A DNA stretch of 64,000 nucleotides. Origin: Siniperca chuatsi. Its lineage: Eukaryota; Chordata; Actinopteri; Centrarchiformes; Sinipercidae. The stretch lies in contig NC_058044.1 of NCBI RefSeq assembly GCF_020085105.1, positions 24,859,206 to 24,923,205 of the forward strand, written 5' to 3'. Positions 627 to 64,000 of the stretch are shown here, one piece after another (positions within the stretch are counted from its first letter, which is position 1; each line of letters begins with the position of its first letter). Below the pieces are notes generated by a model. The model worked only from the letters and a program-made list of their open reading frames with translations. It was not told where the DNA came from and did not search any database. Position numbers and translations under genes: made by a program.

Positions 627-2400
627 TGAGGGAGTGGACTAATGGTTGCCTCCATAGGACCAGTATTAAAGGCGTTGTTGCTCCAAGAGGTCACGAGACC
701 ACAGAAGAGCATGGAGAGCTACCAGCAACCTTCAACAGAAATGGATATGTTACATTGACCTATGGATGGACCTTTGGCCCAACTTGGATGGTCGGATTGG
801 TTTCTGTTCTCTTTGCGCTTGCTGGTGCCATCTTGTGGATGTCCGTTTACTCGTACTCTTAACTACAGAGGCTCACTGTGATCAAGTACAAGAACAAGAT
901 TTCCCTGGGACCAACAGATGTGAATCAAGGATTATCACTCACCTCTTAACACTACAAATGAGTGGAGGGACATTAGCTAGCTTTTATTCGGAAAATGATT
1001 GTTTATCGTATTTAAAATTGGACTTGAAGTTGTAAATATACTGTTTGTGTTTTGGTCTGTGTTTGGTAATTGATCTTGGAGGGGAGCTTTTTATGCTTGT
1101 TTTGTCTTGAATGTTTTGGGAGACCTGCTTTGGTGTACAACTTATCTGTGTGTTTTATGCCTTTTGTCTACCGTAGAAAATTCCCTTTGCAACCTCAAGG
1201 GTGCTGAGCTACTTATTTAAAACTCAGATTAGTTAAGCTTTAAATAAGACTGGCTTAAATTGAATGTCATGAGAAGAGCGGGGCTAGTTTCCCAGACAGA
1301 CTAGTAATGGACTTAAGAAAATGTAAACAAGGTTAGTCGAGCCAAGTTGTCTTGTTTTGAGGACTTCCTGCTGTGCCGCTGTGCTCCTAAATTCTAGCCC
1401 AAATGAATTCACCCTCCATCCCCATCAGTCATTGGTTTGAACATCTGTTGACTTTCTCAGGCCATTTTTGCCTCTAAATCTAATATCCTTAGTTGTGGCT
1501 TTAAGTGGTTTAAACCACCAACAGCATGATCAATTTAAATCTATGGACTCGTAGGGGCAATTCAGACATTGCTTGGTGCTGACGAGGAAGCCTTGTACAA
1601 ATGCAGATGCACAGATTGTTTGCTTAGTTGTGGCGTTTTGTCTTCAGGAAGTGCTGCAGTCATGTCTGAGTCCTTAACAGGAATTTGTAAACTGACTGGA
1701 CATTGGTGAGGGGGATATTTTAATTTTATTTCTCTTTGGATTTTTTATGCATATGCTATGTATTTATGAATGTAAAACAATATTCATCTGCTACTTTTCT
1801 GTGGCCATGTGTTAATATGTGGGACTGTAAGAATCAGAGGTGGAAAGTCATTGGGTACATCTTCTACTGTAAGATTTTCACTGAGCCTTGCTCCTTGTCT
1901 GAGTATTTGTACTTTTGCTGCTTAAGTTAATTCTTATTTTCCAAAAAATGTATTGTGGACATTGGGTTAACAATGCAAGAACCATGTAATGTCAGATGAA
2001 CTTCAGAAAGGGCACAGAAAGTCTTGTTTTTTAATCAGAGCTAACAAATGCTATTGTTTTAATAATTGAACAATCTACACAAATACTTTTATTCTAATAT
2101 AAACTCTGTTTTCTTTCCACCTCTGATTAACATGTGCTGTATTTCCTCTCCAACATTCCCAGTGTCATGGCTGTATGTCTGTGATGAGGTCATCCAGGGC
2201 ATAAAAAATGGTGCATGTTTTCTGTGGTGTATTGAGACAGGTACAATAAGCAGAACTCGGGTGAACATTTAAAGCACTATGTGTAAACGTTTGATAATGA
2301 TTGTTGCTATCAGAGCTGTGTGTCGAAAGGTTTGGATACGGGATTAATTATAATTTTGTCTCCATCGAAAACAGTCGCCCATCAAAATAAAGGGAAAAAA
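627..2400 (+). other. rab40c 3' untranslated region with poly(A) signal
   Basis: Non-coding, AT-rich sequence follows the rab40c stop with no convincing gene of its own. The first canonical AATAAA on this strand is at 2386-2391, followed by an A-rich stretch. That fits the end of a 3'UTR of about 1.77 kb, and mammalian RAB40C also has a long 3'UTR. A second AATAAA lies at 2524-2529. The exact end of the UTR is inferred. Confidence 0.55.
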
Positions 2401-12306: not shown

Positions 12307-12358
<52 letters not shown>

Positions 12359-14971: not shown

Positions 14972-15010
<39 letters not shown>

Positions 15011-18000: not shown

Positions 18001-21000
18001 CGTGTTGGCAGACCTGTGAAGATGCTGTCATGGCAGGGACTGTGACTCTTCGAGCCAGGGGAGTGATCACCTGAGCCAACAAAACAATGGAGTCTGTTGT
18101 GACTGTTTTCTAAGACTTCCAGATCAGACATCAGTTCTTTGAAATGATCTCCACCATCTCCATCCTCTAGCTGTCCTTTCTCCTGAATATGAAGGTCTGG
18201 ATTATCTGTGAGGAAGATCTTACTCTGGACTTCCTCCTGCTCTTCTGCGTGAAGTGGCTGATGGCAGTTTGAATCTCCATTTAGCATCTGCTGTGTTACT
18301 GTTCTGAGCGGGAATACACGAGTGCGGTTTTCCATTTTTGAGCAGGAGGTTTGCAACTCTGTGGGTTCATCTGTTGATGAGGTACAGTTGTTGGTGCTAC
18401 AGACCACCTGGCAGACATGATCACACTCAAGGTGGTGGCTATGTTTGGGATGTGTGCTGTTGTTCACAGAGGTGGCTCTGAGTTCCTCTATAGTCCTTAA
18501 GAGACTTTGGTTCTCCTTCTCCAGCTTCAGCATCCGACTGCGGGTCCTCTCACTCACCTCCTCGCTCAGAGTCTGCTGACCTTTACACAAACACATGATG
18601 GCAATTAGCAGAATGAGATGAGGAGACAGAACTAGAAACACTAATTGTAAACATTTAAAGGTGCTGTTAGGTTTTTTGTACACAGAGCTGGACACAGTGG
18701 TGGAGACCTTTATTATGCCTGTGCACAGTTTGAATGTTTGTTGAATGTAGCTTTGGTCACTTAGCCTATTATATGTCTGTAGGAGCAGTAGCAGGTCCAC
18801 TTTTTAAACTTTGCCATACATATAACATTGTTCATTATACATACAAAATCCTAACAGTTACATTAATTTGATATACAGTAATAAAACGTTACAATTTGTT
18901 TTAACTGAAATCATAAATCTGTACATCACAATTTACAGTGTTTCGTGAAACTTCTCCTAATCCAGTAAATGAACTAATAGTCTATGTCATGCATACATTC
19001 AAACTGCATGCAGAGACATAAAATAGATAAGAAAAGTGCAAATAGATTAAAGCACTCATGCTTTCATGTATCAATGCAAGAACACACTTAATTTACATAT
19101 CAATTTCCTTACTTACCCTACCATTCCAACCGATCCCATCCATTAATTTTCCCATTACTTCATCCCACTGTATCACCAGCTCTTACCCTGAGAGTTCTCA
19201 GTGGTCTTGGAGAGCTGCTCTAACTCCCAGCCCAAGTGCTGGGACTCCTCCATGCTCCTCCTCTGAGCTAAACACAGAGCCAGATTCTCCTCTTGCAGCT
19301 CTTCAATGCGCCTCCGATCTGTCTCCCTCTCCTGAAGTGGAGACAGAAAGTATCAGCAGAGTTATGAGAACAGATTCTGTCCAGCCACTGAAAGGACTAG
19401 ATGATCAGTAAATCTAAAATAAGACATGCGATGTCTTTTAATTATATTGCCACTGATCTCTGTTGTCAATATTAGAAGAGGCTTAATACAAGGCAACACA
19501 AAGGTAACAAAGAAGACACCTCCTTGTGTGCAGTGTGGGTTATGTCTGACCTGTTCCATGTCATGGACCCGGGCATTCAGCAGCAGACTGTGCTTCTCCA
19601 GCTGGTGGATTTTATCTGAGCGTGCCCTCCAGCCTTCTAACTGATCCTCCAACACTTCTTTGGTCTCCTGTAGCACCCTGTTATCCTCCTTTAGCTCCTG
19701 AAACACACACACACCTCAGATTTATACACTCTATCTTCCACTCACTAAAAGTTGTTGTTGCTCTTTATTTCCATCTCTCACTTTTCCATATCTACGGAAA
19801 TTCTCATTTATAATCTAAATAGTGAATATACTATAAAAAATATATCAATATCAAAAATTCATCAATAGGTGATTGTTGAGTATTCAGTGATTTTCTAAAT
19901 TCCAAGCATATATAATCAAAATGTATGTCTCAACATTCACTGGTAAAGCATTTATAAGACTGCAACAACCTCCACTTTGGCCTTGTAGAACTCCATCTTG
20001 TGCAGTTGCTCCCTGTAGCGCCCCACTTCACTCTCCAGCTTGTCCGCCTTTATGGCTCTCTCTCTCAGGGCGTCCAGCTCGTCGCGGTAGGTGCGGGCTG
20101 CGCGGGCATCTACGAGCAGCTGGGAATTCTGGTGAAGGTTCAGACAGAGGCATGATTTATAGCAAAAACCTCAAATAAATGTACCATTATTTTCTCAAGT
20201 GTGAGTGTCAGTTTATTACATTATTTGTATTTAAAGCTGCATTGATCAATGTTTTTATATTAACAATAGATCAAATAAGTACCTGTATTGTGAAAGGGGT
20301 TGCTCGTAGTGACAAATTATCACCCAACTCTGCAGTGCCCCTATTACCTTTAACTTTCCCTTTTTTAAGCTTTTAGTGTCTTTCAGCTTGTTGTTTTGGT
20401 TTTACGGTTTACTACTTTACGGTTTTGGTTCTGTCTCACAGCTCTCATCAACCTCATTTTGAGGCAGGGAGCTGTTTTTAACAAGCAGCTTTGATAAACT
20501 CACTGTACGCTATCGGCCCAGCATTAACTGGACATATAGACAAAGTTAGTGACTAGCATTGAGCAGCTAAAGAGCCATATATTTCCCTCAGGAGTTCAGA
20601 AATCAGAGATAAAAGGAGAGTGAATGTTTTTGATTTACATTCATCAGGTGGCCAGAAACATGACTCCAAATGAATGCTAATGTTGCTCAGTGTCTGCTGG
20701 ATATATACATAGGCAGCTGCTTGCTAGCACATTCGACATGTGTTGCTAACATGCTAACTTGTACAGCCAACCTAAACCACAAGGTTTAAACAGAGAATAC
20801 AAATTGAGATCTCCTGTTCAGACAAATCCATATAAGCTTTAGTTTTATGTCAGAGTTCAGAGGTTTAAATTTGCTGTCATTAAGCGCTGCTCTGCAGCAA
20901 AGTATGGTGTGCAATAATCTGTATAATCTGCAGAGCGTTCAGGAGGTTACTGTGTGTCACCATCAGAAGGAGCTGAAATTTATTCTTCTATTCTTCAAAC

Positions 21001-24000: not shown

Positions 24001-27000
24001 CATATTGAGTATCAGCAAACAGACTAATCAAGCTTCCAACCATATACTGACTTAGCAACTCCAATGGAGAGGAGAGATGAGAAATACTCTGAGTTTTCTT
24101 TAAAAGAGCATACCACAGTAAGGAGTCCTGCCAAGCAGCAACACGTTTGGCAAAGGAATCATGATTAACTGTCTCAGATTATCCTGCAAAAAAAGAGACA
24201 AACAGATAGGGACGAGGGAGATGGGTTGAGAAAAGGGAAGATAGCACATTTTAGGCCAAACTGAAACAAAGACAGAATAAAACACTTTTTGAGGTCTAGC
24301 CAAAGTGCTTGAATGGACAGGGACGTATGTATGTACAGCACATAGCAGATGCTTAAACACATGTATAGAAACAGCCAACAAATGGAGGAGTTCTCTGAAT
24401 GGGTAGATGACAGAGCCAGTTTCCCTGGTGCAGTGGTGAAATCCACCAAAACTGTTTGGTACGGCCTTGTCTCAGGCTATAAGTGGCTTGCGTTCATGGG
24501 TGTGTGTACAGTATGTGTGCTAGTGTGTGTGCAGTGTAATAGTGATTGTTAATAGCTCCTAATAAGGAACGGTGACCCTGTTAATTTCAGGAAACTATTA
24601 ATTCCCACATGCAAAGACAGCTACAGTTGACTGGAGTCATTTAGTCTCTGATGTAATACAGTTCATTTGTTCGACTTGATACCAGTATAAAGCATACCAG
24701 TAGTATCTGTATTATGCCTCTGTGAGTTGAAACCATTGTTTCTCCTAAATGTCACTTTTAAAGAAACTAAGCGTTGTTGTTGCATTTTAGAGTCGATCCA
24801 ATGGATTTTGAGAAGGCGTATAAAGACTCAGTGTCGCAGGATTTTTAGCCACACTAGTGGCATGGCTCTAGGATGGCAATGTTCATGATTGGTCAGTCTA
24901 CCACTTTGGTCCAGACTGAAATATCTCATCAACTATTGGATGGATTGCTATAGTTATTGTGTACAATCTGTACAATTTTGTACAAACATTCATGACCCCA
25001 GATAATGAAGTACACTGACTTTAATGGTCCCTGACTTTTCCTCTAGTGCCACCATGAGGTTGACTTTTTTGTTTGTTGTAAAATATCTTGGCAACAATTA
25101 GATGGATTGCAATGAAATTTGGTACAGACATTCATGGTTCCCAGATTATGTATTCTACTGACTTTGATGATTCCCTGACATTTCCTCTAGTGCCACCCAC
25201 AAGGTTGACATTTGGGGTTTTGACTGAAATATCTCAACAACTATTGGATGGATTACCCTCAAATTTGATACAGACATTCATGCTCCAATTGGGAAAAATT
25301 GTAATTGTAATTCTAGCGCCATCATCAAGTCAAAATCTTAATTTGTCCAATACTTGTTTATGACCAAATGCCTGCAAAACTAATGGTGTTTAGTGCTAAT
25401 TAGCAATAATAATTAGCACAATAGCATGGCTGTAGAGACTCTTCAGTCTTATCTTTGAACTAGTGGAGAAAGCAAGTCCTTCAACTGACCTTACAACATA
25501 AAAATAACCAAAATTGGACCAGAATAGATGTGGTCTTCACATGACAGCAGTTAAAAGATGCAAGAGCTGCCCTACATCTACTTTTACTGAAGTAACCGTA
25601 CTTTATGCTTAGCAAGAGTAACTACAGTAGAAACAACGATTAGACATGCCATTGATGATATCAGATTCTGTCAATCTGTGGTAACAAAAAAATATATAAA
25701 CCCATTATTCCTTTGTGGTGCTATTCTGAAGAACTTGATTGTCCCGTCCTCAGTGAAACTACTTTTCTTGTGATCTTAACAGATCTTAACAGAAGAAAGC
25801 TTAGCTCGAATTGTACTTAATTACTCTGACACAGACAGAAAATCCAAGATTCACCATCAGTGGTGTCTGCCCATGAATTTCGTGACTTTATGTGTCAATC
25901 TAAGCTCTGTCTGTCTGTGGCTCTGACTGCGGCTTTACTGAGGGTCTCTGCTGTGCTCTAACCTCGCTGCTGTGCTGATTACACAGATGTGTACATGGCT
26001 GATATTTAGGGCATGCATGTTAAGAAGAACTAGTTGATCTGCTGCGACGCAAGTGCTATCAACTATCTGGTTTGTGCATGTGTGAGCCAGTGTGTGTGTG
26101 ATGGATGATGCAAAATTGAGGTAGAATTGAAAAATTCAAATCTAATGTTCAGATATCATAATTCGATGTAGATGCAGATGGAAAGCTTAGCAGGCTAAAG
26201 ATTGGATACATATATATAACATATTGCATGGCTGAGAAACAAGGGGAGGGAACATCCAAAACTCACCAGATAATACGTCTTGATTTGCTGGGCAAGGAAG
26301 TTCAGGTTCTGGATCCTCTGACTTGGATCCCTGCTCACTTTTTTTGCACCCTGAGGTGCAGCTGAGGGATTTCTGAAGATGGGACAGAGCATAAAGGCAT
26401 TTTACTTGACATTTCTTGCTATTCACAAACAAACAAATGGTTGTTGGAGTGAGAGGAAGCTGCGAGCTGGTAAAAGTCTTGGCTCAAGCATCGCCATGAA
26501 AACATGTATGAGGTCTCTATTCATTCCTAACTTTAGCCTGTGTGATGTCATTCCTTTCAGCCAACAAACTGGACTGTTTTCGAGCCAAATGGGGTGGCAT
26601 TAGACTTTCCAACCAAAGGAAACCCTTTAGCTGGATTCTTGGGCTGTTGGCTCAGACCTACTGTAGTCTGAGGTTGAACTGTCATACATTATAGCTGAAA
26701 TGTTATCATTCATGGACTTTAGTAGTTATAGTTAGCAGTTATATAGGTCAGACTTCACCTTGTTGCTCAGGAAAGGAAACCTGTTGTGTTAAATTTATTC
26801 TGTACCTGGGGAAACAGATCGAGAGACATACAGAAAGACATAATGGATGAAAGAGAGACATAGCTGCTGCCTAGCTGTCCAGTGCATCACATTTTTTAGT
26901 CCGCCTGTCTCCATCTCTGTGCTGTTTGTCCTGTTTCTGTGCTTCCTCCTCCCTCCCATCTGTGTCCCAGTGCCACTAAACACCAGCAATAAAGCCCTAA

Positions 27001-30368: not shown

Positions 30369-33300
30369 TCAAGATAAAGGGTTCTTCCACTCATTCTCCT
30401 CCTTAGTCTCCATATGAATTTTGGCTTGTTGCAGGTTTCTGTATGTGCCCTGTTGATCTTTGTTTCCTTTTAGGCTCTTAGCGTAACGTGACCTCCAGTC
30501 TCTTTCAAAAGCAGCCTTGACGTGTTCCAGGACTGTCACTCCACTCTCTTTAAGATTATTTTTCATCTTGACCACCAGTCCAACTCCTGCATTAATGGCA
30601 AAGTCACTCCCAACCCAGTCATGGTTACCTGTGGACAAACAGCAAACCTTAGATATTGTGTTTGTAACAGGTCTCAAGGAAAAATCACTTTGAGTCCCAG
30701 CACTGTGCTTTTCTTTCTGGTGTGCATGTTCAAATGTATATGCAGTTTGGTGCTTGTGTGTCAGTTTCTGTGTGTGAGTGAGCAAACATTATAAAGCAAT
30801 AGTTCCACATTTGGAAAAATACCCTTCTTTGCTGTCTTGCTGAGGGTTAGATGAGAAGATTGATACCATTCACACCATATACTGTGTGTCTGTTAAATAT
30901 GAAGCTACAGCCAGGAGATGGCTAGCTTAGCTTAGCTAGTCTGGCTCTGTCCAAAGGTGAAGAAATCTGCCTAGCACCCACCTCTAAAGGTGATTAACGC
31001 GTTATATCTTGTTAGTTTAACATCGTTAATCGTTACGAAAAACCATAGGTATTTTACGAAGAGTTATGTGCTGGACTATTTCTTGGCCGGGCACTGTGAC
31101 TTCCTGGAGTCTCTGGTAGCTTGCTTAGCACACCTCACAGTGACAATAAGACTAGTAGTCTCCCATAATCCCTATATACTGTATGATAGATGTAAACTAG
31201 CTAGCAACGGATGCATTGACCATGTGTGTGTGGGAGTGTGTTAGTGTTTAGCTCAGCCTCTGACTGAAAGAACTCTGGTTCTTTCTGTTATTTCCCTCCA
31301 GTCTCTCTCCTTTCTCCTCTTGTGTTTGTTTATGAAGCGAATTCATAAAGCGAATTGAAACATTTTCAACACGTCAATTCGTGTTGTCCTGGGCGAATAT
31401 GTGTCTAATCACGTCTTAACTTTGACTGTATGCAAGTACATGGGAAGTTACTGCTCCAAGTCAAGAAAAGTAAAACTGTAAAACTGCAACCTGTTGGTTT
31501 TCCACTTTTGTTTTTGTACAGATTGAACGCAATAGTTAACTTTAGTGGTGTTCTTAGGCAGAGTTTTTTTTTTCTTTGGACACAGCCAGGCTAGTTGTTT
31601 CCCCCTGTTTTCAGTCTTTGTGCTAAGCTAAGCTAACTGTCTCCTGGCTGTAGCTTCATATTTAACAGATAAACATGAGAGTGGTATTAATCTTCTCATC
31701 TAACTCTAGGCCAGAAAGCGAACAAGCCTATTTCCCAAACTATTCTATATTAGTACTATAAAAAAGTACTGTCTAATGTTTTTAAAATAGCACTCGTGCT
31801 AAAATCAAGACCCACTAAAATACCTTTAAAATGTGTAAATGCAAATAAAATCGACGTAAAAATGTATGTAAATGTAAATTGAATTTGTTGCAAACACATT
31901 ATACACTGCCTACCAATGTAGACAGCATTGTCGGTCACCATGTACTTGTTGTGGTTGAGTCCATGTTGAATGTCATCCTCTTTCTCCTTGTGACTAAAAA
32001 ACCTCTGCAAAAAATTAAGTTTAACAGTGTGTAAGATACCACATCCACTCAATGTAACATTTGCAGTATGAATCAAGAAGTTCACTGCAAATACTAAACT
32101 ACAGCTTTTGTAAAACATGTTTGGAGGAATTATGCTAACTGACGTACCACCTCTAATGAACAGTTGCGCAGCTGCATGCAGAGCGACTTGAGGGAGGTGA
32201 CAAAGTTAAAGGTGAGGGGGTGAGTCTTCTTCCAGAAACTTATCAGCAGGCGAACTCTGACTCCTCTCAGTACCACAGCCTCTCTGATCACCTCATCAAT
32301 AGGTGACCAGTACCTATTGATGCAACCATTGTAATTAGACATGTTTTACAATCTAAAGGCAATGATACACTTACAGTGTGTTTCTCAAATTTAAGTTACT
32401 GAAAGATTTGATTTCATTCAATTTTTCATCCCTAGACCAACAAATATAGAATTTATAATTATAAAAACTTATCTGTCACAAGAAACTATGTTTGAATGTC
32501 AAAGTTCTTAGGAATATAGAGTTTTAATGTACCTTGTGACTGAGGTTCCTCTGAAACTCCTGTTCACCAGAGGGAGGTAGTCTGTCACGGATATGAAGAT
32601 AAATGTCTTTGCACTCTGGATGACTTGATAGATGGCGTCTACATCTCTGGTGCGATCTTTAGAGCAGAAGACTTCAGGAGAGGTCTGCAGAAAGGATACA
32701 TCACTCAGACAAGTTTGTACTCAAAATTATATAAAGATTACAAAAATGATTTAGACGTTTTTGAATATTCGGTTTGTTTCAGTTCATCAAACAAAAGTTG
32801 ACAAAAGTATCTTTTAATTTACACTCCACTGAAAAATGTTACACTGATGAGGACAACATCATTTGGGTTTATAAGTTTCCAAACTGACAGATTCAGTGTA
32901 ACATTTTGACAGAGGAGGCTAAAGGGCAAGAAAAACAACAAGGCACATTTCTCCACCCATGTATCACTACTGGAAGAAGTGAGGCACAAGAGCAGGTTGG
33001 AGTTGCCAGCAGCTTCTGACAGCATGACTTCATTAGTTCCTGTAGGATGATAAATGTCCTAAATGCAACTGATAAGCGTCTTGTCGCTTAGAGGGTAACA
33101 AGATTCATTACTGTCAAATTAGGCTGAGGTACTGAGATATTCAGACTCAAGATGCTCCTCAGCGTGATAGTAACATGATTAATCACCCGCCGTGTGTGTC
33201 TGTTATTAGTCGGTAATGAAATTTTTATATGACATTCACCATCTCATCCAGAGTCAGGAAATTGGTGCCTTAAGTGGAATATAAACCAGTCTAAGAATGC

Positions 33301-36300
33301 ATTACGGACACAACCTGTGGGTTGTGCATTTTGTATAGAGTCAATCGTAACATACAGTAAATACTGCAACATAACAAAGTCGTTCCTCACAGAGACATAT
33401 GCAGTGGCCTGGGTGGTGTTCAGTTGTAGCTCCAGGGCGTCATGTCTCCCGTAGAGGGCTGTAACTCTCTTTGACCAGATGGAGGGGATGTAGTCCCTCT
33501 CATGGAGCTGCCAGTAAAATGAAAAGACTCGGTGGAGGTCCAGAGCCAGACAGCTGCAGTTATATACCACCAAGCCCAGTTCTTTCCTCTGTGGGGTGTC
33601 AGAAAGGAGCACATAGAGAGAGGTGATGCAGCAGAAAAGTTGCAGTGTAGGTTTGTTTACTGGGTAGACATGCTTTAGCAATGTGAGAGAGGAATTAGAG
33701 TTAAATAAAAGGCAAAAGTGATTTTAGATTAAGAATAGTAACACTCTGCGAGAGGATCTGCTCATCTAATAGTAGTAATTTTAAGATTAGAATAGGATCA
33801 GGATTTAAAGAGCATTAAAGAGTCTCTAGGCTCAGTGGTGCTTTGAGCTAAATGCTTACATTAGCATGCTAACATGCTGATCATATATAATATTTACCAT
33901 GTATGGCAACCATAGTAAATATTATACATTTTAGTTGGGCGTATAAGCATGTTGCTAAGTAGCACAAAACACAACAGCTAAGGCTGCTAGTACTTTGTCA
34001 TAAATCAAAGTACTGGATGAATTGAAATTTTGACCTGATGATGGCGCTAGATGAAAAGTTAAGGTATCACCAAAGTTATTACAATTCATCAATTAATTTG
34101 TGTACCACATTTCATGACAAATCCATCAAAGAGTTGTCAAGACATTTCACTCAAAACCACTAATATCAACCTCATGGTGGTGCTAGAGGAAAAGTCAGGG
34201 GAGTCAATAGGAGGTATCCACTAGGCAGAGTGGGCATATGTACCAATGGTAAATGGCAATCCATCCAATCATTGTTGAGATATCTCAGCCTGGACCAAAG
34301 TGGTGGGTTACCGACCGACCGACAGACCAACATTGCCATCCATAGAGCTGCTAGCATTGCTAAAAACAGCAAAATGAAAAGTGAACAAGAGACAGTTGTT
34401 CTAAATATATTCTTGCCTGGCCAGCAGAAATTTGTTTTGTGTTTATTCTATTTTGGTGAGTGACCCAGAAGCAAGCACACAGAGGTTTCAGTCTATTCTA
34501 CTGAATGTATGGTGAATTTCTGACAGATTCTGCCTTGCTCCCTTTTTGTCTCTCTTCTTTCCTGCTCTTCTATCATTTGCTCTGTACGGAGTGTGTGTAT
34601 GTGTGCACGCCACTTCCTTCCCTCTAGCTCCTTCGTTAATTACACTGAACAGTAGTTCTACCTCGAGCCAGTATTGAAGCATGAAAACTGCCAGGCAATC
34701 ACTTCAAGTAGTAGTATGCTAATGCTCCCTGGATCCTCCTCTGTGAATTACTACATGTTAAATGCAAAGGGAAATGCTACTTGTCTTTCTGGACTGCCTC
34801 AGGCAGCATCTTCAATCATCCCTGATGCCCATTAAGAGTTGCTGGAGTAACTGTATGTACCGGTGTACAGTGGAATTAATCCAGACTCTGTGTTTCAAGT
34901 CCTTGTGGGGTGCCAAGGTCAATTTGTGTACGTCAGCTTTTATTTCTTAGAGACCAAAAGCTACTGTGGCCATTTTGAGGCCAGAAATGAACTGCAGACT
35001 TGACCACACCTGACTGCAGGCGCTCATTTATCCTCAGGTTGTTGATGTTTGTTGTTACCTTGGAGAGCGACCTCCAATCCATATCAGCACTCCCGATGTA
35101 AATATGCTTCCGATCCACTATCCAGAATGAGGAATGTAGTCGTCCTCTGGTAAGAGCTGTCATATTAACAAAATGAACCTCTGCATCTAGAGAGCGTGAG
35201 ACAGAGAGACAGACATGGAGTGGTAAGTATGAAAGGTTTGAAAGAATGAGATAGAGAGAATCGAAAATCTGCCAATTGGATCTTGGTCTGTCTGACGGAC
35301 ACGTGGGCAAAGCAAGCAGGCAGCCTGAGAGGCAAAGGCTTCGAAAGGAAACCAGTCAGGTACATTTGCACATTCGTGATTTTTTTACCTTCACTGTGAA
35401 GTTTGGCAGACATGAAGGTTGTATGACCCGTGCTGTGGAGCTGCTGGATGGAGCTGCACGGTGTAAATGAACCTACATCTGTTTTCCTTGAGACAAATCA
35501 GAGATACTGTATGCGATATGTACAATATTGTGCTTCTGGCCTAAAACAGGCAACTAAAAAAATGACTAAAATTGTCATGAAATACATGGGAATCTTCTTT
35601 TAAAAACTGGTTTGTGCACAAGAAATGTTGTCGGGTGAGTTGTTAGGAGCTATAAATCTTCGGTCTAGTTGGCTACAGTGACAAACTACAAATTGCTTTT
35701 ATAAAATGAAAATATGACAGTCACTCACTGTGTGCTGCCAAGGTCTTCAGTTCAGCAGAGTTAGTCAGACTGCTGGCAATCTTCAGTTTAACCCCACGAG
35801 ATTTCAGACTGAGCAGTCTCTGGAACAAAAGCTGACCCTGAGGAAGAGAGTGATGTTCTGTATTACTGTAGTTGGGCATCTGAGCAGCGTTTTCTGAATG
35901 TCTTTTAAAAGGGCAATACTCACATCTCAGCAGGACTAACCTCATTAAAAGACTATATACAGATTTACTTGAAAATAATTGCATTTCCTCTTACAGAACA
36001 CCTGGGAAATGCAATTGGTTCATGCTCTGCTGGAATGTAAGGGGATACATTCAGACAGTCTGCCATGACTTTGTACCTGTTTGGCAGTGCTTGGCGTTGT
36101 TTCCGGGTCCCAGGGGTTTAAGGCCCAGACAGGTGACACCACCTCAACTGAGTGCTTTGCCTGGTCCAACAGTGTGTGAAAGCCAACAGAGAGAGAGAGG
36201 TGGGGTCTGACATCCACGGGAAGAGAGAGGTCGTCTGGAATATTCTCCACAAGCTCGATGCTGAAAGTAACACATGCGCCTTGAGTTTCTGGACCGTTAA

Positions 36301-39300
36301 AGTGGAACTCAATGATTTTACACATCAAAATCTGTTTATTAAACAGACTTTGATGAACAAAGTCTGTGGAATAAAAAGATGATATCTCTGATTCTGCTGC
36401 AGCGATTTTGATACTTTTTCAAAATGAAAACTGTCCATCGTGAGTCTGACGACGTTATAGCAGTGCAATGCTAAATTGGTGGAGTACTCTTTTAAGAGTG
36501 TGTAGAAATATGGCACTGTACTCTTTAGGTGACAACACTTACAAAATCCTGAGTTTCCAAGGAACCAGTGAGAAACGAATCAGGAGCGACCTGATAATTT
36601 ATGAATCCTAGTCCCTAAATAACTCTGAATTGAGGATTATGTAGTAGATAATGATGAGTTACTGGAGAACAGACTTGAGATACTATGTTCATGAATCATT
36701 ATTTTATGATTAGTTCATAGACATTTTGCACTACACATGAATGCCAACCTTATTTTTTTCTTGCCTTTTTATGTTATCACGTCACACTTGCAGAGCATCT
36801 TACCGGCAGTCTCTGCTACAGTTTTCCTCTGTGATACCGTCCTCATCGTCCCCCCAAATGTCCACTGATGAGAAGATCAGCGCCACCAGCACAGCAAAGC
36901 AGCAGAGAAGGGCGAAGATGGCAATGCACTTCTGCTGGGTCTGGAAGAGGAGTTAGACACACACACATTAAGCAAAAGTCAGACTTAGTTCTTTAACGTG
37001 TTTTTGTGAAGGATGCATGAGCCGCAGCCCTGTAGAACTCATCTCTTCCCCTGTTGTGATACAGCAGGTTAACATCTTGCAGTGAAGACATACAAATGGG
37101 AAATGATCAGCCCTTAAATGCTAATGTCCACAGTCAATATCATTGATTAGAGGATAGGATTCATGCTCAATACAACAACAACTACATGTCTTCTTTTGAC
37201 AGTAGAAACCCTTGAATGGACAACCAGGCTGCAGAGGAATTCAAAACTCTGGAGCAAAAGTTCCCCAGCTTCACAAATCCCACTTTATGCCACAGAGCAG
37301 AGGACAAGTGAAGTGGAATGCTCTCCAGCTGACGGCAAATTGATACACACTAAAGCCCAACCATAAGGAATATTGGAAAGCTCTGGTTAATGCTTTTCTG
37401 TACACCACCTGCTTTGTTGTTCAAGCGAATCCCAGCTGAAAGGGATTTTATGACCTCTGTGTCAGGATGGATATGCCCAATGTCGCATTTATGACAAGCA
37501 ATATTAAAGGCTATATTGGTGTGCATGTATGTGTGCACAGTATGTGGTATATACTGGTTGTAATAATGGTGGAGTGACAGTCAGTGTGGTCAGTGGTTAT
37601 GAAGCAGCAGCCTCATTGCCCTGATCTCGCTCGAGGAGTCTTGATTTTCACTGTTTTAAAAGTGCAGTTAGGCACTTCTGTTTTGCTTACGACTACAGAT
37701 TTTCACCATCTCATTCCCTGCCCTGTTTGGCTTTGTCGGTTTTGTGAGCTGTCATCACATCTCATTACATATTCTCTTTTGTTGTGTTCAATCAATCAAA
37801 TGAATTGTATCCCACTGATAAGTTCGGTAGCTTTAACAGCAGCTTTTCTCAGAGAGATGACTCCCAGCTACAACTTTTATAAAATTTGACTATTGAACAG
37901 AAGAAAAACACTATTCAGCACCAAGTCATAGAGAAAACAGGGGTTGGAGGATGTTTGTCAACCTCATCTCACACTCTTTTCTACACTGTCTGTTTGGGGC
38001 AATGAGGCTGAAAGACTGGTGCAAACCGGATGCACCTTACACTCCTCTGCTGTCCACTGAGCTCTTCATCACATTTAGCAGAGTCAAGGACCATGCTTGA
38101 CTTGTGGATGTGTACATGGCTGCTAGGAAATAAAGCCTCATGATACAGAACAAGACTGACAGAATGAGACAGGTCAGTCGACTTACAGCTACCGATGCAG
38201 TAAGATACAATATTTCCTTCACTTCAGAAACATATAACATTTTCAATAAGTTTCCACAGCTGTTCACTGCAGTAAAAATAACCTTATCACTGAATTTAGA
38301 GCTGACACGATTAATTGATTATTCAGTTATTTGATTCAAAGAATGGCAATTGGAAAAATGGATAACTGTCATTTATCAAGCAGAAATGTCCATTATTAGC
38401 TGGTTCCAGCTTCACAAAAGTGTGAATTTTCTTATGTGATTTTCTTTTATATCATGGTAAATTGAAAGTTTTGGGGTTTGTTATGTTGGACAAATGTTAA
38501 GACAAAACAAATAATTTGAAGACATAGACTTTAGCTGTGAGAAATTGGGATAGTTGTTTTTTTTTATAGATTTGAGATTAAATCATTAAAAGAAAAGGAA
38601 TTGGCAATAATTTTGATAATCACTAGAATCTATCCAGCAAAAATGACAAACACTAGCTGGTTAGAGCTTCTCATAAATGTGAGAATTTTCTTTTTTCCCT
38701 GTTTTATATAAAAATAAATTGAATATCTTTGGGTTCTGTACTGTTGTTTGGACAAAACAATCAATTTGAATATGTACCCTCGGGCTGTGAGAAATTGGGA
38801 TAGTCATTTTTTAACTATTTTATAGACTGAATCCTTAATTGAAAATGAATTGGCCACAATTTTGATAATCAATAGAATCATCCAAGTCCTTTATCAAGCA
38901 AAATGCCAAATATTAGCTGGTTCCAGCTTCCCAAATGTGTGGATTTTCTTCTTTTCTCTGTTTTATATCATTATAAATTGATATATCTGATAATTTTCTG
39001 ACATTTCACAGGCTAAATGATTAATCGATTATTCCAAGAAATTATTGTTAATTGATAATGAAATTGTTAATCACAGCCCTAACTGTGTTTATTATACACA
39101 TCTGTGTTTTCACTGGATAACTGAAGAACACATGGAATGAATTTAAGGCTTCATTCAAATGAATCAGTGAATGAATAATGTAATGGAAGGCAGCAAGAAA
39201 AGCCTAAGGCAAACATGCACTAAAATCCCACCAACAGACAAAGTGAGAATAATATAACGTATTAAATAGATGCAGAGTGACGCAAGTGTAGTTGAGGGCT

Positions 39301-55900: not shown

Positions 55901-58900
55901 ATACTTGAAATAAAGACTTGATTGAGAAAAACATCTAAAATTCAAACTCTAGAATAGCCCTATGGTATGCAGAGTTTGAGGAGTATTGTTTAATATTGAA
56001 ACAGGGACTCACATCGTCTTTATTCCATGTCTGTCTGCGGATGGAGCGGGAGCTCTGTCCACTTGAGCCTCGGGGTCGAAGCTCCACAGACCGCCCATTA
56101 GTTTCCATAATGCTGCTGTGCTCTGCAGAAGGACCACCCACGTCCAAGCTGTCATCAAATACACGCTCCTCCAACTAAAACCGAATTAAAATTTACAAAA
56201 AAGAAATGTTATTTCATCAGATCCTATTTGTGTTCAATTGTACATACTTTGACTTTATTAAGAATCTGAATTTCATTGTAAAGAACATGTTGAATCTTGG
56301 AAGAAGCAAATAGTTGAAAATCCTGATATTTTGTGGTTATCAAATATAGCAGATAGAAAAAAACAAGCTATGTTGTGGTTGTTTTACAATGTGTTGACTA
56401 CCAGAGCTCCAGGGTCTGTGGCTGCAGGGCTGACTGAGTCGATCTCTCCTGCCACATCATGAATTTCTCTGGCAAGCATGGCTAGATCTTTGGCAAGGTC
56501 TTGGCTAATCCTGACAAACAAACACAAATATTAAATCACCATCTGATGTATGTTAAACCAATTTTTCTTTTGTTTTATTTGGTGATATTTATTTCATATA
56601 CTTCATACAAGAACTCATAACCATCAAAAGCACTGCATAATGAAAAAATTGTAATAACAGCTGTTAGCAGGAGAAGCACGTTTGAATACTGTTATCATGA
56701 CTCATCACTGCTCTCAAACGGCACTAGAGTACCTATCACCAACGTACCTGGCTATTTCCTCGCTGTGGGCTGTCCAGTCTCTCATATACTCGTCCTGTTC
56801 CCTGGAGTGCTGCTTCAGGGCAGCCAAGCCTGCAGGATTAGGAGTTGCAGGGGCTGAACCACCTAGCTGGGCTACCCGAGTGGAAGGGAACGGCCGTGTT
56901 TGGCCCTGCTTGGATATGTGGCGGTTTGAGCCATACTCGTCCTCTGAGGTAGAGGCATACTCAACAGGTACGCGGCGCCACCGAGTGCCGGCTAATATTA
57001 AGAAAGAATGGAAGTTAAGTTTAGATGGTGCTTAAAATGTGCTAATTACTAGATTTTTTTTGGTCACTTGGGGGCAGTGCAACAAGCTGTAAACACAGCA
57101 TTCAGGTTGATATGGCAAATGTTTTACCAAACAGTTGCCTATTTACACATCCAGCAGACAGTGAGCAATGTAAGAATTCATTTGGAGTCATGTTTCTGAA
57201 AACCTGACGAATGTAAGTCCAATATTCACTCTTTTTTAGCGCTGTTTTGGTCTCCACCAACTACTGAAAAAAATATTTGGCTCTTTAGCTGCTTAATGCT
57301 GCACGATGTTTACCAGCTAGTCGCTAACTTTGTCAGTCTGCTGTTTGGTGCTGGGCAGGTAGTGTACAGTGGGATTAGTCAGGTGATCATTTTCTGTGGA
57401 TTCGTCACTACGAGCGACTCCTTTTACATCAAACATAATAATTTGACCCACTGTTCATTTGAAAATAAATTAGTGTAGCCTTAGGGAATAGCTAGTTTTA
57501 CAGGCTGGTAATTACAGATACTTATATAATATTTAGGCAGTAAAAGCATTAATTGGACCAAGGAAAGAACAGAATGTGTCAAAGATAATACTATTTCCAT
57601 TTCCAATGGACATGAAAGGAAATTGTTTACTATAGAAAAAACTACTTACACACAGGTGTGACATGTCCAAAGGAGGAGGTGCCTTTATTCTTGTCAGGCA
57701 GCTTGGAGGCGCTGTTAGCCCTAGCTCTGGGTCCAGACACTGAGGTCACATTAGACCCTCTCAGTCCTTGTCTGATGGCATAATCACCTGCAGCACTCCG
57801 GGCCCCCAGACCTCTACTCCTTGTCACAGTGGCCTCTGAGTCACTCTGGGCGGACGGGGAGCCCACCCTCGGCCTCCTCGGCTGTGCCAGAGCCTCTATC
57901 CTGGACATTCCCCTTCTTGCCATACCTGTCCTGGATGTGGAACTAGCGGTGGAGGCCTCAGAGGCTACCGACATCCGGTCAAGATCAGCAGGTTCAGTGT
58001 CTGATGAGTCCCCCAGCCTGGCTCGCCTCAGCAAGGACGCCCTGGTGGGCCTGGGCTTGGAAACACTGGTGGTTTTACTGGCTGCAGAAGAGGCTTGGGC
58101 CTGGGTGATTTTAGCCCGACTAGACTTGGTGCTAGCCCCCACAGTCTGGGCTCTGGCATGTGAGCTTCTAGATTCCTGTGTAGAGGTGGGCTGGGAGTCA
58201 GACAGGAGAGAGTTGGAGTTGACGTCATCGTCAGTGAGGTCCTGGGAAGTCCAGGGGCGGCTGGGCTGCAGAGGACCAGATGCCCTGGTCTTGACCCTTC
58301 TGTCCTGGTTCTCTCGGGCTCCAGCGGGGCCTTTGCTGGATGAGCACACTACAGTTCTCTCCTTCAGCTGTCCTGCAAGAGTCCGGCGTTTCTGGACTAC
58401 TTTTCTCGCTCCGTCAGCCTGGCTTACTGTGCTGGTCGTGTCTACATCTGACTCTGGTGACATGGAGCCTTCAATAGACTGACTTGGTGGGTCACCTTGG
58501 TCTGATATGGTTGTCTCTAAAAAGGCTGCCACAGCTTCTGAGTCTTTCTGCAGTGTGGTGCTGTCAATGCCAGTCTCCCTACTCTGAGTTCTGCTGCGTG
58601 TGAGCCCATCGATGCGAGGTATGAGCTCAATGGGCACGCTGGAGCTTGGTTTCTCCACAGTAAAACTCTCTTGCCTCAATAATGGTTTGCCACTACTTTC
58701 CCTAGCCTTCTCCTCCTCCTTTTTCCTTCTCCGTGCCTCCTCCATTCTTTTCTCCCCACTGGTCAGTGGACGAGGGGGGAGCTTGGCCAACACACCTGAC
58801 TGGCCTGACCTCCCGCCACCACTATCCTGCGACTTGGCTGGTGAGGAGCGACTGGGGCTACCACCGCCCACACCTCCAGTGCCATGACCAGGCCGATTCT

Positions 58901-61900
58901 TTCCCCTGGCCATCTTCTCCCCCTGGTTGTCCTTCTCCTGTAGCTCTGTGTCCTGTTTCTCCCCCATATCTGTACGCAGGCCTGAGCCTGGGGTCCTCCT
59001 TCCTAGGGCGAGCTCCTCACCAGGTAGCTGGGGCAGAGTTCTCCTCTTACGCTCTGTGTAGCCAGACGAGGCAAAGGAGGCTGAGTGGCTGGACTCACTT
59101 ATTTCAGCTGAAAGGAGAGAAAAACTTATTATTAGTATAATACATATCAATGGTAGGTGGTATGCTAGTAGAATTGATGCACTGGTGCTGTGGTTTCGAT
59201 TCAGTGATTCTCTTTCTACCAGATGAACCGTGAGATGTTATTATGTTCTTCATACTTTAATGAATTGTCAAGCAGTCTGTCATTTTTATAGTGCTGAAAA
59301 ATGTGTGCAAGCATCATTTACAGTACAGAAATCCCTACATGAATTTGTTCATTTGTTCATAGCGTGCTGGAACTTGTAAGAAATAACACAAGCTTACAAA
59401 TGAAAAGTTGAATTCATAATCAGTAAAATGCTTGCTCAATTCAATACACTTACCATACTTGGACTGGTATGACCTGTAGCTTATGGTGGCTCATTTTAGC
59501 AAAGTTTAGATAGATTGCTGTGTAACTGACTATGGAGTCAGTTTTACTGCCTTTGTGGCTCTTCTCTACTTGTGCTGCTGTTTTATCATTTACCCGTACC
59601 CTGTAATTGTCTTTTGGGGCCACAGTGGCTTTTGTTTAGCAAAAGTAACATATCAAAGTTTCGCTTTAAATGAACAAAATCCTGCAGTCTTAGCAATATT
59701 TACCCAAACCCTGGGAAAATAATACTCTGATGAGGTTATACCATGACATTGTGCATCACAAGTTTTCGATAATTAGGTCATGTTTCCCACCACTAGTTAA
59801 TTTCCCCAACATCTTATGGTAGAAGGATTCAACTCTTGAAATTCAAGAAACCTAAACCAACCTAGACCATGAACTTCAAATGAGCTGACCAACCAAAATA
59901 TTTGTGTCTTTCCTGTTCAGATGAGATTTTATATAAGTACCTCTGTCCTCTGTGACCATGATGTGACTCTCCCCTCCTGATCCCTCAGGGTCTGTCCTAA
60001 TGTGACTGGCAGCCAGAGTAGCCCACTGCGAGACCCAGCGAGGGCCACCCACCACCAATTCCTCACGTAGTACCTGGACAAAGACATGAAAGATACAAGA
60101 TACATACACCGATTGTGTTTAAACAGAGTAGCAGTAGCTGCTTGTTCTGTTGAAGCTAATTAAACTGAGACATTTTGGACTGCATTTTTTGTCAGTTGGT
60201 CAGTTTACACACCAGACATTGGTTTGAATTTAAAAACTTTCAGTTTTTGCACCTCTGTCTCCATGCGTCCAGGCTTTCCTCTGTCTCTGGTGCCAGACCT
60301 CTGTGAGGTGAGCGTCTCTCTTTTGTCAGCACCCCCCAACCTGGACACACACACAGCCTCCTGCTCATCCACACCAAACACCTGCAACATACACACATGC
60401 AAAAGTAAACAAGCACACACATACATGTATTAAAATGATTGTTTTATGATAGAATCAGAAGCCGACTCAATACATGGAAGGGGCTTATTTATAAGTTTCA
60501 TCTTCCCCACCTTGTCGATCATTTTCCTAGCCTCCTCCTCTTCATGATCTCCATTCTCCAGCTCAATGGTATAGGTCCCTCTGTCACTATAATCATCCCC
60601 ATGGTGATAGCACTCATCACGGCCACTCTGCTGATGTGGTGCCTCTCCACGTCGCCTCTCCACGAATCCACTTGCCACTTTGGAAGTCGAAGACTTGCGA
60701 CGACGAGCAGGACTGTCCTCCTCTGCGAAGAGCCCCTCTGGTACGTTAGCACGACCCTCTCTGATCTTCATCCCTGCACCGTCCCAAAGCCCCCACGAGC
60801 GTTCCTCCATTGCCACGGCCCTGCGCTGCTCTCCAAGTGCGTTCTCTGAGTCACTCTGAGTACCGTCCTCATGTTTACTGCCTGGCATGGGAGGGTAGAG
60901 AAGAAGGTAATGGGTCAGAATGAAAAAAAAAAAGAAAGAGACAAGGAGGGTTAAAGAGAGGCTTAGGCTAAATTAAACTGAAGCAAACAAGCAAGAAATA
61001 TTTATCATATTATCTTATGATAAATACAGACACACATGCTGCACACAAATGGCTGCACATACACACCTTTAAGACTCTTCAGTTGCACAGGCACATCACT
61101 CTTCACACTTTCCCCATCATCCTCAGCAGCCGTGTCTTTCAGAGCCAACGGCAGCTCATTCTGAGCCAGCCAGTCAGCAACTTTGACCTCCGCAGCTACC
61201 ATGGCTGTCTGAAGTGGACTTAGCTCCTCCCCGACAGCCCTTTTAGGACGCGGCCTGGTCTCTGGTCCCACCTTCGCCACTCGATCTTTGACAGTCACTT
61301 TACCTGTCGCCCCAGGGTCAAACTCAATAGTGAAGGAGGCGTGGCCATGGGTGGGCTCTGCACCAGAAGATGCACCAGCCTCTTGTTCTCGCGAGGGGGC
61401 TTCACCGCTCTCTTTACCTGCTGAGGAAGTATCCTTCGTTGGGATCTCAAAGTAGCTAGGCTCCTGATTGGAAGCTGTTTGCGGGGCAGACTTTGGGACC
61501 TCTGTACTTTTCTTGGTGTCTGTCAGAATTAAAGCAAACGTATGTATTTAGCACCCCAAAGTCTACTAAATATAAGGGAAGTAGTAATATATTTATAAAG
61601 CCTGAACATATTTAAAGCTGCTAACAGCTAAGTTGGGAAAATAGAGATATTTCAAATAACACAATCCACATTAATTACTGCCTTAACTACATCACATAAA
61701 ATAGTATTTTTGCAGCATTGTAAATACCTGTTTCAGCTTTTTCTCGCTTCCGATCTGAGCTCTTTTCCTCAGGTCTCCCTGGTTGCTGGTCATCAGCGTC
61801 TCCATCTCCCCACCAGGCAGGCTGGCCATAGAGGGGCGTGCCTCTGTGCAACAATGCTAGGTCAACTGGCAAAAACAACCCGTCGTTTAATCTTACAAGG

Positions 61901-63572
61901 GACCACAACTTACCACAACTAAAACATTTTAAACAGCTTAAGAAGTGAAGACCAACTGTTGGATCATTTTGGCCGTAGCTGGTTGTTTACTTTGCCAAGT
62001 ACTACAGGGCTGCAACTAGCAATGATTTTCATTATTGATTTATCCATCTTTTAACCCCCTATTTAACCCCAATTTAGCATTTATAAGGACTATCTAAACA
62101 ATTTATAATGATTTATAATACATTGTAACATACTAATGTAGTTGTAAGCACATATTTTTAGTGTTTATAATTTTTTTGTGTTTATGTATATGTGTATCTA
62201 TCTTGTGTATTAAGCATCTGAAACTGGTGTATATACAGTTTAATGACCAACAGACCAAAACTCAAAGATCTTCAGTTTATAAAGATATAAAACAGAGAAA
62301 AGAACCTAATCCTCAAATTGGGAAGCAAGAACCAGCAAAAGTTTGGCATTTTTGATGAATAAATGACTCAAATTGTTGACAAATACATCAATCCACCAAC
62401 CGTTTCAGCACTCAAATACTTTTGAACATAACTAGCCATCAATATGTGATCCTCAGACTCCTATAAATTTGTGAAAGCGACACTGAGATCTGTGTCATTG
62501 ATATGCTCATGCAGTGTTGTGACCTGCATCCTCTGTGCTGCATCCTCTGACATTTTCACCTGTCGCCTTATCATCCACCCTGTTGGCCTCGGGGGGCTTG
62601 GCGGCGGCCCCCTCACACACCGGTGCTGCTGCTGCCTCGGAGGGTTTCACCTCACATTTAGACGATTCCCCTTCTGGAGGTTTCTTCTGGTTCAGCTGAA
62701 GCTGGCTGCTGAACTTCTCATGCTGACAGATGGGACGAGCAGGGAGAGTTTAGAGAGACGGAGGCAAAACTTGACTGTCAAATCTATGCTGCTAAATCTA
62801 TATGACGGCAGCCAGATTTTAATTGAAAATTTTAGAAAACAATCATGTCTAACACATTTATAGTGCATAACTCCAGACTGTACATTTTCTTTTTCATTTT
62901 CTCTTCAGCCATAGCATATAATTGAAGAGACATTATAAATATTACCACTGAACTTTCATCTTCCTCATTAAGAAGAAATCCTATCCTTTCTACGGGTACC
63001 TGGGCAGTTTCATCAGATTCATCAATCTTGAAAAGTAGTATTTTGCACATCAGCAGAACTCTTTGCTCTCTTTGACTAAAATCCACCTTTCAGGGTTTTT
63101 TTTCACACTGATGAAAAAATAGTGCTTTCTGGCTGCACTGCTTTGAGCAGGCATATTTAATCTGCCCTTTTACATATGAACTCTGGCTACTAGTTCCTCA
63201 CAACACGCACAACATGCTGTCTAACCTTGAGGGCCTCCTCTGGAATATGCATCTCCCCCCGAACCACAGTGAACAGGTTGGTATGTGAGGCAGGTTAAGG
63301 TAAAAGATGACGAGCTCTTTGCAGGGGTGAGAAACATACACTGATAGCCTTATCTATTATGCAGCAGGCAGAGTGCATCGAGCATTCACAGCTATTCAAG
63401 AACAGATGAAGTTACAGTGTTGTCCATGTACACTGACCTTGTGCTGTGTGTCACTGGGTTTGACAGGTATACAAGACCATATTCAAAGGATATCATACCC
63501 AAACCTTAATTTGTCATCCATCTTCAGTGTGACATAGATTTGCTCCTGGATTCTGACATCATTGACAAATGT
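52927..63572 (-). CDS. cep170: CEP170, centrosomal FHA-domain microtubule-binding protein (5' end outside window)
   Basis: Sixteen exons, minus strand: 63494-63572, 63226-63284, 62560-62722, 61728-61865, 61067-61519, 60511-60881, 60253-60381, 59941-60073, 57650-59107, 56748-56991, 56402-56510, 56013-56174, 55352-55440, 54835-54928, 53290-53341, 52927-53150. They total 3957 nt (1318 aa) with consistent phases. The first exon(s), including the FHA N-terminus, lie beyond 64000. Visible parts are the end of the FHA domain ([20 protein letters not shown], then KLRFGYDTNLFTVV), [77 protein letters not shown], a large Ser/Arg-rich exon (57650-59107) with [12 protein letters not shown], and a helical C-terminal region ([20 protein letters not shown]). 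CEP170 binds mother-centriole subdistal appendages and spindle microtubules and is a PLK1 partner. FTVV after RFGYDTNL and [13 protein letters not shown] favour CEP170 over CEP170B. An alternative donor at 62522-62523 would add 36 nt (12 codons) to the 62560 exon. Stop TGA 52927-52929. Confidence 0.9.
54335..54775 (-). repeat. Dispersed repeat family A, reverse copy in a cep170 intron
   Basis: GCTAACATGCTGACAATGAC, GCTAATTAGCAATAAACACA, GAACATGAATGTCTGAACCA and ATGGAAAACCATCCAATAGC are the reverse complement of the copies at 24835 and 40895. It lies about 60 bases from the exon at 54835-54928. Confidence 0.6.
57050..57450 (+). repeat. Dispersed repeat family C, forward copy in a cep170 intron
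   Basis: Starts near TTTTTTGGTCACTTGGGGGC, passes AACAGTTGCCTATTTACACA, TCATTTGGAGTCATGTTTCT, GTAAGTCCAATATTCACTCT and TTTGGTGCTGGGCAGGTAGT, and ends with GGATTCGTCACTACGAGCGA. A start-only fragment (TTTTTTGTCGATTTGGGGGC) occurs at 48966-49030. Confidence 0.6.
62000..62420. repeat. Dispersed repeat family D, forward copy in a cep170 intron
   Basis: GGGCTGCAACTAGCAATGAT at the start, AGACCAAAACTCAAAGATCT in the middle, GAACCAGCAAAAGTTTGGCA and CAACCGTTTCAGCACTC at the end. It lies between cep170 exons 62560-62722 and 61728-61865. Confidence 0.55.
63285..63493 (-). other. U12-type AT-AC intron of cep170
   Basis: On the minus strand the exon ends GGGTATG and the intron opens ATATCCTTTG, the consensus of the minor (U12) AT-AC 5' splice site. 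It closes with ACCTTAACC (63301-63293, close to the U12 branch-point consensus TTCCTTAAC) and TGCCTCAC, so the 3' terminus is AC at 63286-63285. The join gives codon G|AT and reads RFGYD-TNLFTVV, the conserved FHA-region sequence. No GT or AG alternative restores this frame. The intron is 209 nt. Confidence 0.88.
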
Positions 63573-64000
63573 CTGCAAACAAAAGCAGAGTGTGATTAAG
63601 AGCAAGAGGGTAAAGATTTGGGCTGGGTGTTGAATCCCAGTTGTGTTTGTGTAATGAATTGTGTCTGTAACACCTAGTACTGAAAACAACCAACGACCAA
63701 AAGCTTGGACCGGACGCTTGGTCAGAATCCTTGTTTAGTTTACTTATTCTTGAAACAGATATTTAATAATTCTGATATTTTTACACTGTCTGTTCGTGTT
63801 ATGACAGCATTACCCATGGAGAAGTTAAGCTTATTTGTCCTTTTTTGTAAAATAGAATTGAAAAATATGTTAATACTACTCATCAAAGTATAATTGATCA
63901 GTACCAAAAACTCATATTGGTAGCAGGACTGAAAATGTGAAAATAATACAAGTTCTATTATTTTACACTGGCTAAACGCTTGATAGCCAAATAAATAAAA
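63573..64000 (-). other. cep170 intron (partial)
   Basis: AT-rich sequence upstream (minus strand) of the FHA exon, whose acceptor is TTGTTTGCAG. No upstream exon of cep170 and no other gene is visible before the window ends. Confidence 0.55.

What the first reader, a model, noticed from the sequence alone, without database searches (positions are those of the whole stretch)
63285..63493. cep170 carries a U12-type AT-AC intron inside the FHA-domain coding region
The minus-strand exon stops at GGGTATG and continues ATATCCTTTG, an exact U12 AT-AC 5' splice site. The other side has ACCTTAACC about 10 bases before a terminal AC. Joining there restores RFGYDTNLFTVV, conserved in CEP170. A standard GT-AG search fails here, so gene predictors would truncate the FHA domain or start the gene late.
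Basis: partly seen in the sequence, partly recalled or inferred. Interest (0 to 1): 0.72.

Follow-up and report, generated by a model that had tools for sequence, protein, structure and literature searches.

The report
Minor-spliceosome AT-AC intron in fish cep170
A gene for the centrosome protein CEP170, probably of a fish, carries a rare kind of intron cut out by the minor spliceosome; the same intron sits at the same place in two sister genes, so it looks real and old, but it belongs to a well-known class.

Summary
Minus-strand intron 63493..63285 (209 nt, phase 1) starts ATATCCTTT, has TACCTTAAC with its two As 11 and 10 nt before the end, and ends in AC. Spliced out, 124 residues align gap-free to the human CEP170 FHA chain 4jon_A (E 7.6e-72), across the junction. 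The only stop-free GT-AG join that keeps PEEALK loses 24 residues. Two paralogues in the same genome have introns at the identical codon and phase, with the same first nine bases, a TTAAC motif and AC ends; their interiors do not align. That fits selection on U12 splice signals in an intron older than these paralogues. Corrections: Pfam's FHA match ends two residues before the split codon, so retention does not lower it (61.8 against 60.8 bits); and the motif pair alone recurs by chance in the window. RNA, a U12 classifier and this genome's minor snRNAs were not tested. The class is well known. Ten paper searches found no held paper identified as describing this intron; databases and supplementary lists could not be consulted, so it may be catalogued already.

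The parts
63285..63493 (-). U12-type AT-AC (A-type) intron, 209 nt, phase 1
   Evidence: gap-free protein homology across the junction
63485..63493 (-). 5' splice site ATATCCTTT (intron positions 1-9)
   Evidence: identical in 3 of 3 paralogous introns
63294..63302 (-). branch-site motif TACCTTAAC; candidate branch adenosines 63296 and 63295, 11 and 10 nt before the last intron base
   Evidence: counterparts TTCCTTAAC (C11) and TACTTTAAC (C15); branch use itself not shown
63285..63286 (-). 3' terminal dinucleotide AC
   Evidence: AC in 3 of 3 paralogues
63494..63572 (-). upstream coding exon [26 protein letters not shown] plus first base of the Asp codon
63226..63284 (-). downstream coding exon (D)[19 protein letters not shown], followed by a GT donor
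57645..59237 (-). open frame with the CEP170 C-terminus domain, same strand, taken as the same gene
   Evidence: Pfam PF15308 CEP170_C, 209.5 bits, cut-off 27; the exons between were not all joined

Best explanation
This is a genuine U12-type (minor-spliceosome) AT-AC intron in cep170, immediately after the FHA core, inherited from before the duplications that gave the three CEP170-family loci found in this genome. Mechanism, inferred from the established pathway: U11/U12 di-snRNP recognises AUAUCCUUU and the UACCUUAAC branch site together, U6atac replaces U11 at the 5' splice site, the branch A attacks the 5' A, and the exons join as UAU-G|AU-ACC, making Asp. If the intron is retained, the frame reads Asp-Ile-Leu-stop, giving a product that ends just after the FHA core and is probably an NMD target. 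Sequence, position, paralogue conservation and the retained reading frame are shown; the spliceosome steps, NMD, the age and any regulation are inferred.
For: Exact motifs and coordinates. The spliced protein matches human CEP170 4jon_A gap-free over 124 aa, E 7.6e-72, and over the two flanking exons alone, E 2.2e-21. Same codon, same phase, ATATCCTTT and AC ends in 3 of 3 introns of 209, 289 and 703 nt. Three-way identity is 9 of the first 10 intron bases, then 0-3 per 10; anchored at the 3' end it is 5 of the last 10, then 0-2 per 10. Intron-against-intron blastn gives only short stretches; the best, E 0.10, is 16 bases at the branch-site region. Branch As to intron end 11/10, 15/14 and 13/12 nt, around the 11-13 nt optimum in PMC3584512 (passages). 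Of 24 stop-free joins that keep PEEALK, one AT-AC join alone gives the 46-aa gap-free peptide. A published U12 AT-AC example, human SMYD2, has the same form, |ATATCCTTTA...AGCAC|, phase 1 (PMC7367187, passages).
Against: No RNA reads. U11, U12, U4atac and U6atac were not shown in this genome: 14 genome-search requests did not complete, 11 of them for U6atac or U12. No trained U12 classifier was run. The branch distance here (11/10 nt) is at or just under the optimum and C11's (15/14) is above it. The branch motif varies at two of nine positions among the three genes. The motif pair occurs by chance elsewhere in the window. Only loci of one genome were compared; no other species' DNA was seen.
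Confidence: 0.96

Rival explanations
1. A major-spliceosome (U2-type) intron with AT-AC ends, so that the minor spliceosome is not involved.
For: AT-AC ends are not exclusive to U12 introns (PMC3584512, passages; PMC8280824, passages).
Against: The 5' site has the full ATATCCTTT and a TTAAC branch motif at short distance in 3 of 3 paralogues; the 5' site and branch site, not the termini, are named as the defining features in the passage.
Confidence: 0.02
2. An ordinary GT-AG intron with a shifted exon end.
For: A GT lies 4 bases before the junction (GG|GTATG), and one stop-free GT-AG join keeps PEEALK.
Against: That join deletes 24 of 46 residues conserved to human and cuts the Pfam FHA match. 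The nearby GT is absent in both paralogues (GGATATG and GGCTATG).
Confidence: 0.015
3. A retained segment or pseudogene: the stretch is not an intron, or the gene copy is dead.
For: No RNA data were available; the frame stops three codons into the segment.
Against: Unalignable intron interiors against well-conserved exons, the intact FHA end and the CEP170_C open frame fit a live gene.
Confidence: 0.01

Closest known systems
U12-type AT-AC minor introns of vertebrates, e.g. the SMYD2 intron in Table 1 of PMC7367187
   Same: ATATCCTTT 5' site, CCTTGAC/CCTTAAC-like branch region near an AC end, phase 1 (passages)
   Different: Different host gene; here the intron is seen in three paralogues of one genome
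A-type introns dependent on CENATAC (PMC8280824)
   Same: AT-AC termini; in human cells 92% of A-type minor introns were affected by CENATAC depletion (passages)
   Different: Response of the cep170 intron is untested; CEP170 does not occur in that main text
Human CEP170 FHA domain, PDB 4jon
   Same: Protein sequence continues gap-free across the junction
   Different: A protein record: it says nothing of the human intron, which I could not inspect

Membership tests
U12-type AT-AC minor intron | 5' splice site ATATCCTTT | tested here: met
   exact at 63493..63485; same in C11 and C15
U12-type AT-AC minor intron | conserved branch-site motif (TTCCTTRAC-like; exact consensus recalled) a short distance, optimum 11-13 nt, before the 3' site | tested here: met
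   TACCTTAAC, As 11 and 10 nt before the intron end; optimum from PMC3584512 passage
U12-type AT-AC minor intron | AC at the 3' end | tested here: met
   63286..63285
U12-type AT-AC minor intron | conservation of position and class among related genes | tested here: met
   3 of 3 CEP170-family loci returned by the own-genome DNA search; that search scores only its best candidates and may have missed others; orthologues of other species not seen
U12-type AT-AC minor intron | score by a trained classifier (intronIC or MIDB matrices) | not testable with these tools
   matrices not held
U12-type AT-AC minor intron | minor-spliceosome snRNAs present in the genome | not tested
   U6atac and U12 requests unanswered; U11 and U4atac were never asked for
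U12-type AT-AC minor intron | removal in vivo, dependent on U11/U12/U6atac | not testable with these tools
   no RNA data
CEP170 gene | N-terminal FHA and CEP170 C-terminus | tested here: met
   FHA PF00498 60.8 bits, cut-off 20.7; 4jon_A E 7.6e-72; CEP170_C PF15308 209.5 bits, cut-off 27

The most novel reading that the evidence does not exclude
The CEP170 family has kept an AT-AC minor intron at one codon in each copy since before the copies separated, because slow A-type minor splicing gates how much full-length CEP170 is made. The centrosome protein would then be a direct target of CENATAC and the minor spliceosome, and retention would yield a short FHA-only product, linking minor-spliceosome disease with microcephaly to centriole and cilium control.
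Probability: 0.12. Interest if true: 0.55.

Novelty: new member of a known kind. Interest (0 to 1): 0.27.

Why it matters
Annotation: a GT-AG-only gene finder would lose the reading frame of cep170 just after the FHA core. Biology: a WDR62-CEP170-KIF2A pathway of cilium disassembly is tied to microcephaly (title of a cited reference, seen), and minor-spliceosome defects have been linked to ciliary defects (passages) and, for CENATAC, to aneuploidy with microcephaly in two siblings (passages). An AT-AC intron in all three CEP170-family loci found here makes the family a simple candidate target to test. The intron class itself is long established.

Tried and rejected
GT-AG, GC-AG, AT-AC, AT-AG and GT-AC joins were enumerated within 63180-63600 (donors more than 20 nt into the exon, introns of 60 nt or more, stop-containing products dropped). 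175 stop-free joins remained: GT-AG 23, GC-AG 7, AT-AC 55, AT-AG 69, GT-AC 21. Of these, 24 keep PEEALK: GT-AG 1, AT-AC 14, AT-AG 4, GT-AC 5, GC-AG 0. Only one, AT-AC, gives the human-like 46 aa without gain or loss.

Other U12-like pairs in the window (6 besides this one) were considered. The GTATCCTT at 32699 on the minus strand is the tail of an intron (GTATCCTTTCTGCAG before a pld5-like exon, read by eye), not a donor. The pair at 1483..1692 on the plus strand lies in sequence where I saw no coding exon by eye. The two pairs from 23954 and the two from 61429 were not examined. Rfam scan of the window at gathering thresholds: 0 matches.

Literature: ten searches. The widest that required CEP170 with U12 by word start gave 6 papers; with RNU4ATAC 2; with minor introns 1. 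Of these I searched only PMC11684760, where CEP170 occurs once, in a cited title; for the others I saw titles and abstract starts only, none of which concerns this intron, so a mention in their bodies is not excluded. Searches did not require CEP170 and listed 20, 20, 20 and 10 of 236, 124, 104 and 79 papers; listed ones had no occurrence of the CEP170, CEP170B or KIAA names searched. Searches gave 0. From recall only, human CEP170 may already be in U12DB or MIDB.

Full report
What was checked. The window lies on contig C3 of a genome of 718,788,923 bases; that it is a fish is my inference from gene content, not a tool result. On the minus strand the exon ending ...AGGTTTGGGTATG (63494) is followed by ATATCCTTTGAATATGG; the segment ends ...CATCTTTTACCTTAACCTGCCTCAC (63285), and the next exon begins ATACCAACCTGTTCACTG (63284). 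The segment is 209 nt long and falls in phase 1, between the first and second base of an Asp codon.

The ends are fixed by protein homology, not by the motifs. The two flanking exons spliced there read [46 protein letters not shown], which aligns over all 46 residues without a gap to residues 67-112 of 4jon_A, 'Centrosomal protein of 170 kDa' (E 2.2e-21). With the two upstream exons, which lie outside the window in L007, and the start of the next exon (boundaries placed by eye from homology and frame), 124 of 125 residues align gap-free with E 7.6e-72. A downstream open frame in the window matches Pfam CEP170_C. The gene is cep170.

No conventional join works. Enumerating stop-free joins in 63180-63600 gave 23 GT-AG, 7 GC-AG, 55 AT-AC, 69 AT-AG and 21 GT-AC (175 in all); 24 keep the conserved PEEALK, one of these is GT-AG, and it loses 24 residues. 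The GT four bases upstream of the junction is not present in the paralogues.

Paralogues. A DNA search of the own genome with 401 bases found matches on two other contigs. C11 (20983882-20984170, plus strand; L005 883-1171) has GGATATG|ATATCCTTTCAC...TTTCCTTAACCTGTCTGTCTCAC|ATACCAACC, 289 nt. C15 (12102209-12101507, minus strand; L006 2210-1508) has GGCTATG|ATATCCTTTTATG...TACTTTAACTCCTCCTGCAC|ATGCTCATG, 703 nt. Spliced, both align gap-free to human CEP170 (46 aa, E 8.5e-22; 76 aa, E 2.6e-34). From recalled sequence features the C15 gene looks like CEP170B; this was not tested. In all three the first nine intron bases are identical; beyond them, anchored identity falls to 0-3 per 10 bases. Anchored at the 3' end it is 5 of the last 10, then 0-2. 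Blastn between introns finds only short stretches, the best (16 bases, E 0.10) at the branch-site region. Sequence that has drifted apart except at U12 splice signals is what purifying selection on those signals leaves. That the intron predates the duplications is a parsimony inference.

Chance. In this window RTATCCTT occurs 6 times and a branch-plus-end motif 45 times on 128,000 positions; the pair within 2 kb turns up at six other combinations. One, near pld5-like exons, reads as an intron tail and not a donor; four of the six were not examined. So motif searching alone is a weak test; agreement with homology-fixed ends in three genes is the strong one.

Class. PMC3584512 (passages) gives the 5' site and branch site, not the termini, as the defining features, with an optimum branch distance of 11-13 nt; here the two As are 11 and 10 nt from the end. 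PMC7367187 (passages) lists U12 AT-AC introns of the same form and gives 22% (zebrafish), 12% (each of two pufferfish) and 26% (human) of U12 introns as AT-AC. It also reports a bias against phase 0 among U12 introns; this intron is phase 1. I therefore file it as a U12 AT-AC intron. RNA, classifier and snRNA tests are missing; the genome searches for U6atac and U12 snRNA did not complete (11 calls, the last being), and U11 and U4atac were not asked for.

Consequence of failure to splice. Retained, the frame stops at the 3rd codon after the junction codon here, the 6th in C11 and the 33rd in C15. Pfam's FHA match covers residues 24-90, profile 2-67 of 67, with 60.8 bits spliced against 61.8 retained; Gly90 is two residues before the split Asp92. 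The forced GT-AG join does cut it (profile 2-53, 53.7 bits). Retention loses TNLFTVV and the rest of CEP170. In FHA folds that stretch is probably a terminal strand (inference).

Function and novelty. Mechanism follows the known minor pathway and is inferred. [quoted passage not shown] nothing here tests it. Ten searches gave no held paper that I could identify as describing this intron, but most co-mention papers were seen only as listings, and gene lists in supplements and databases were out of reach, so the intron may already be catalogued. Verdict: a correct, well-read observation of an ordinary member of a rare, known class.

Noticed in passing
30369-36418, minus strand: PLD5-like exons downstream of cep170 (PLDc motif, PF00614, in 34936-35355). 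The sequence reads HSSFW where active phospholipases D have HxK (recalled), fitting the inactive PLD5; human CEP170 and PLD5 are also neighbours (recalled).
   Followed up: partly
4012-5595, plus strand: Long open frame with two Kunitz stretches, an Ig domain and an NTR module: a WFIKKN-like protease-inhibitor gene (name recalled).
   Followed up: partly
32699-32685, minus strand: GTATCCTTTCTGCAG at an intron 3' end: a U12 5'-site look-alike beside an acceptor, useful as a false-positive control for motif scans.
   Followed up: partly
24973-25282: Tandem array of about 2.2 copies of a 146-base unit, 77% matches.
   Followed up: no
9504-19715, minus strand: Several long open frames rich in coiled-coil-like sequence, perhaps one large coiled-coil gene (girdin/daple-like by eye); the two frames scanned had no Pfam match at 0.001.
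   Followed up: partly
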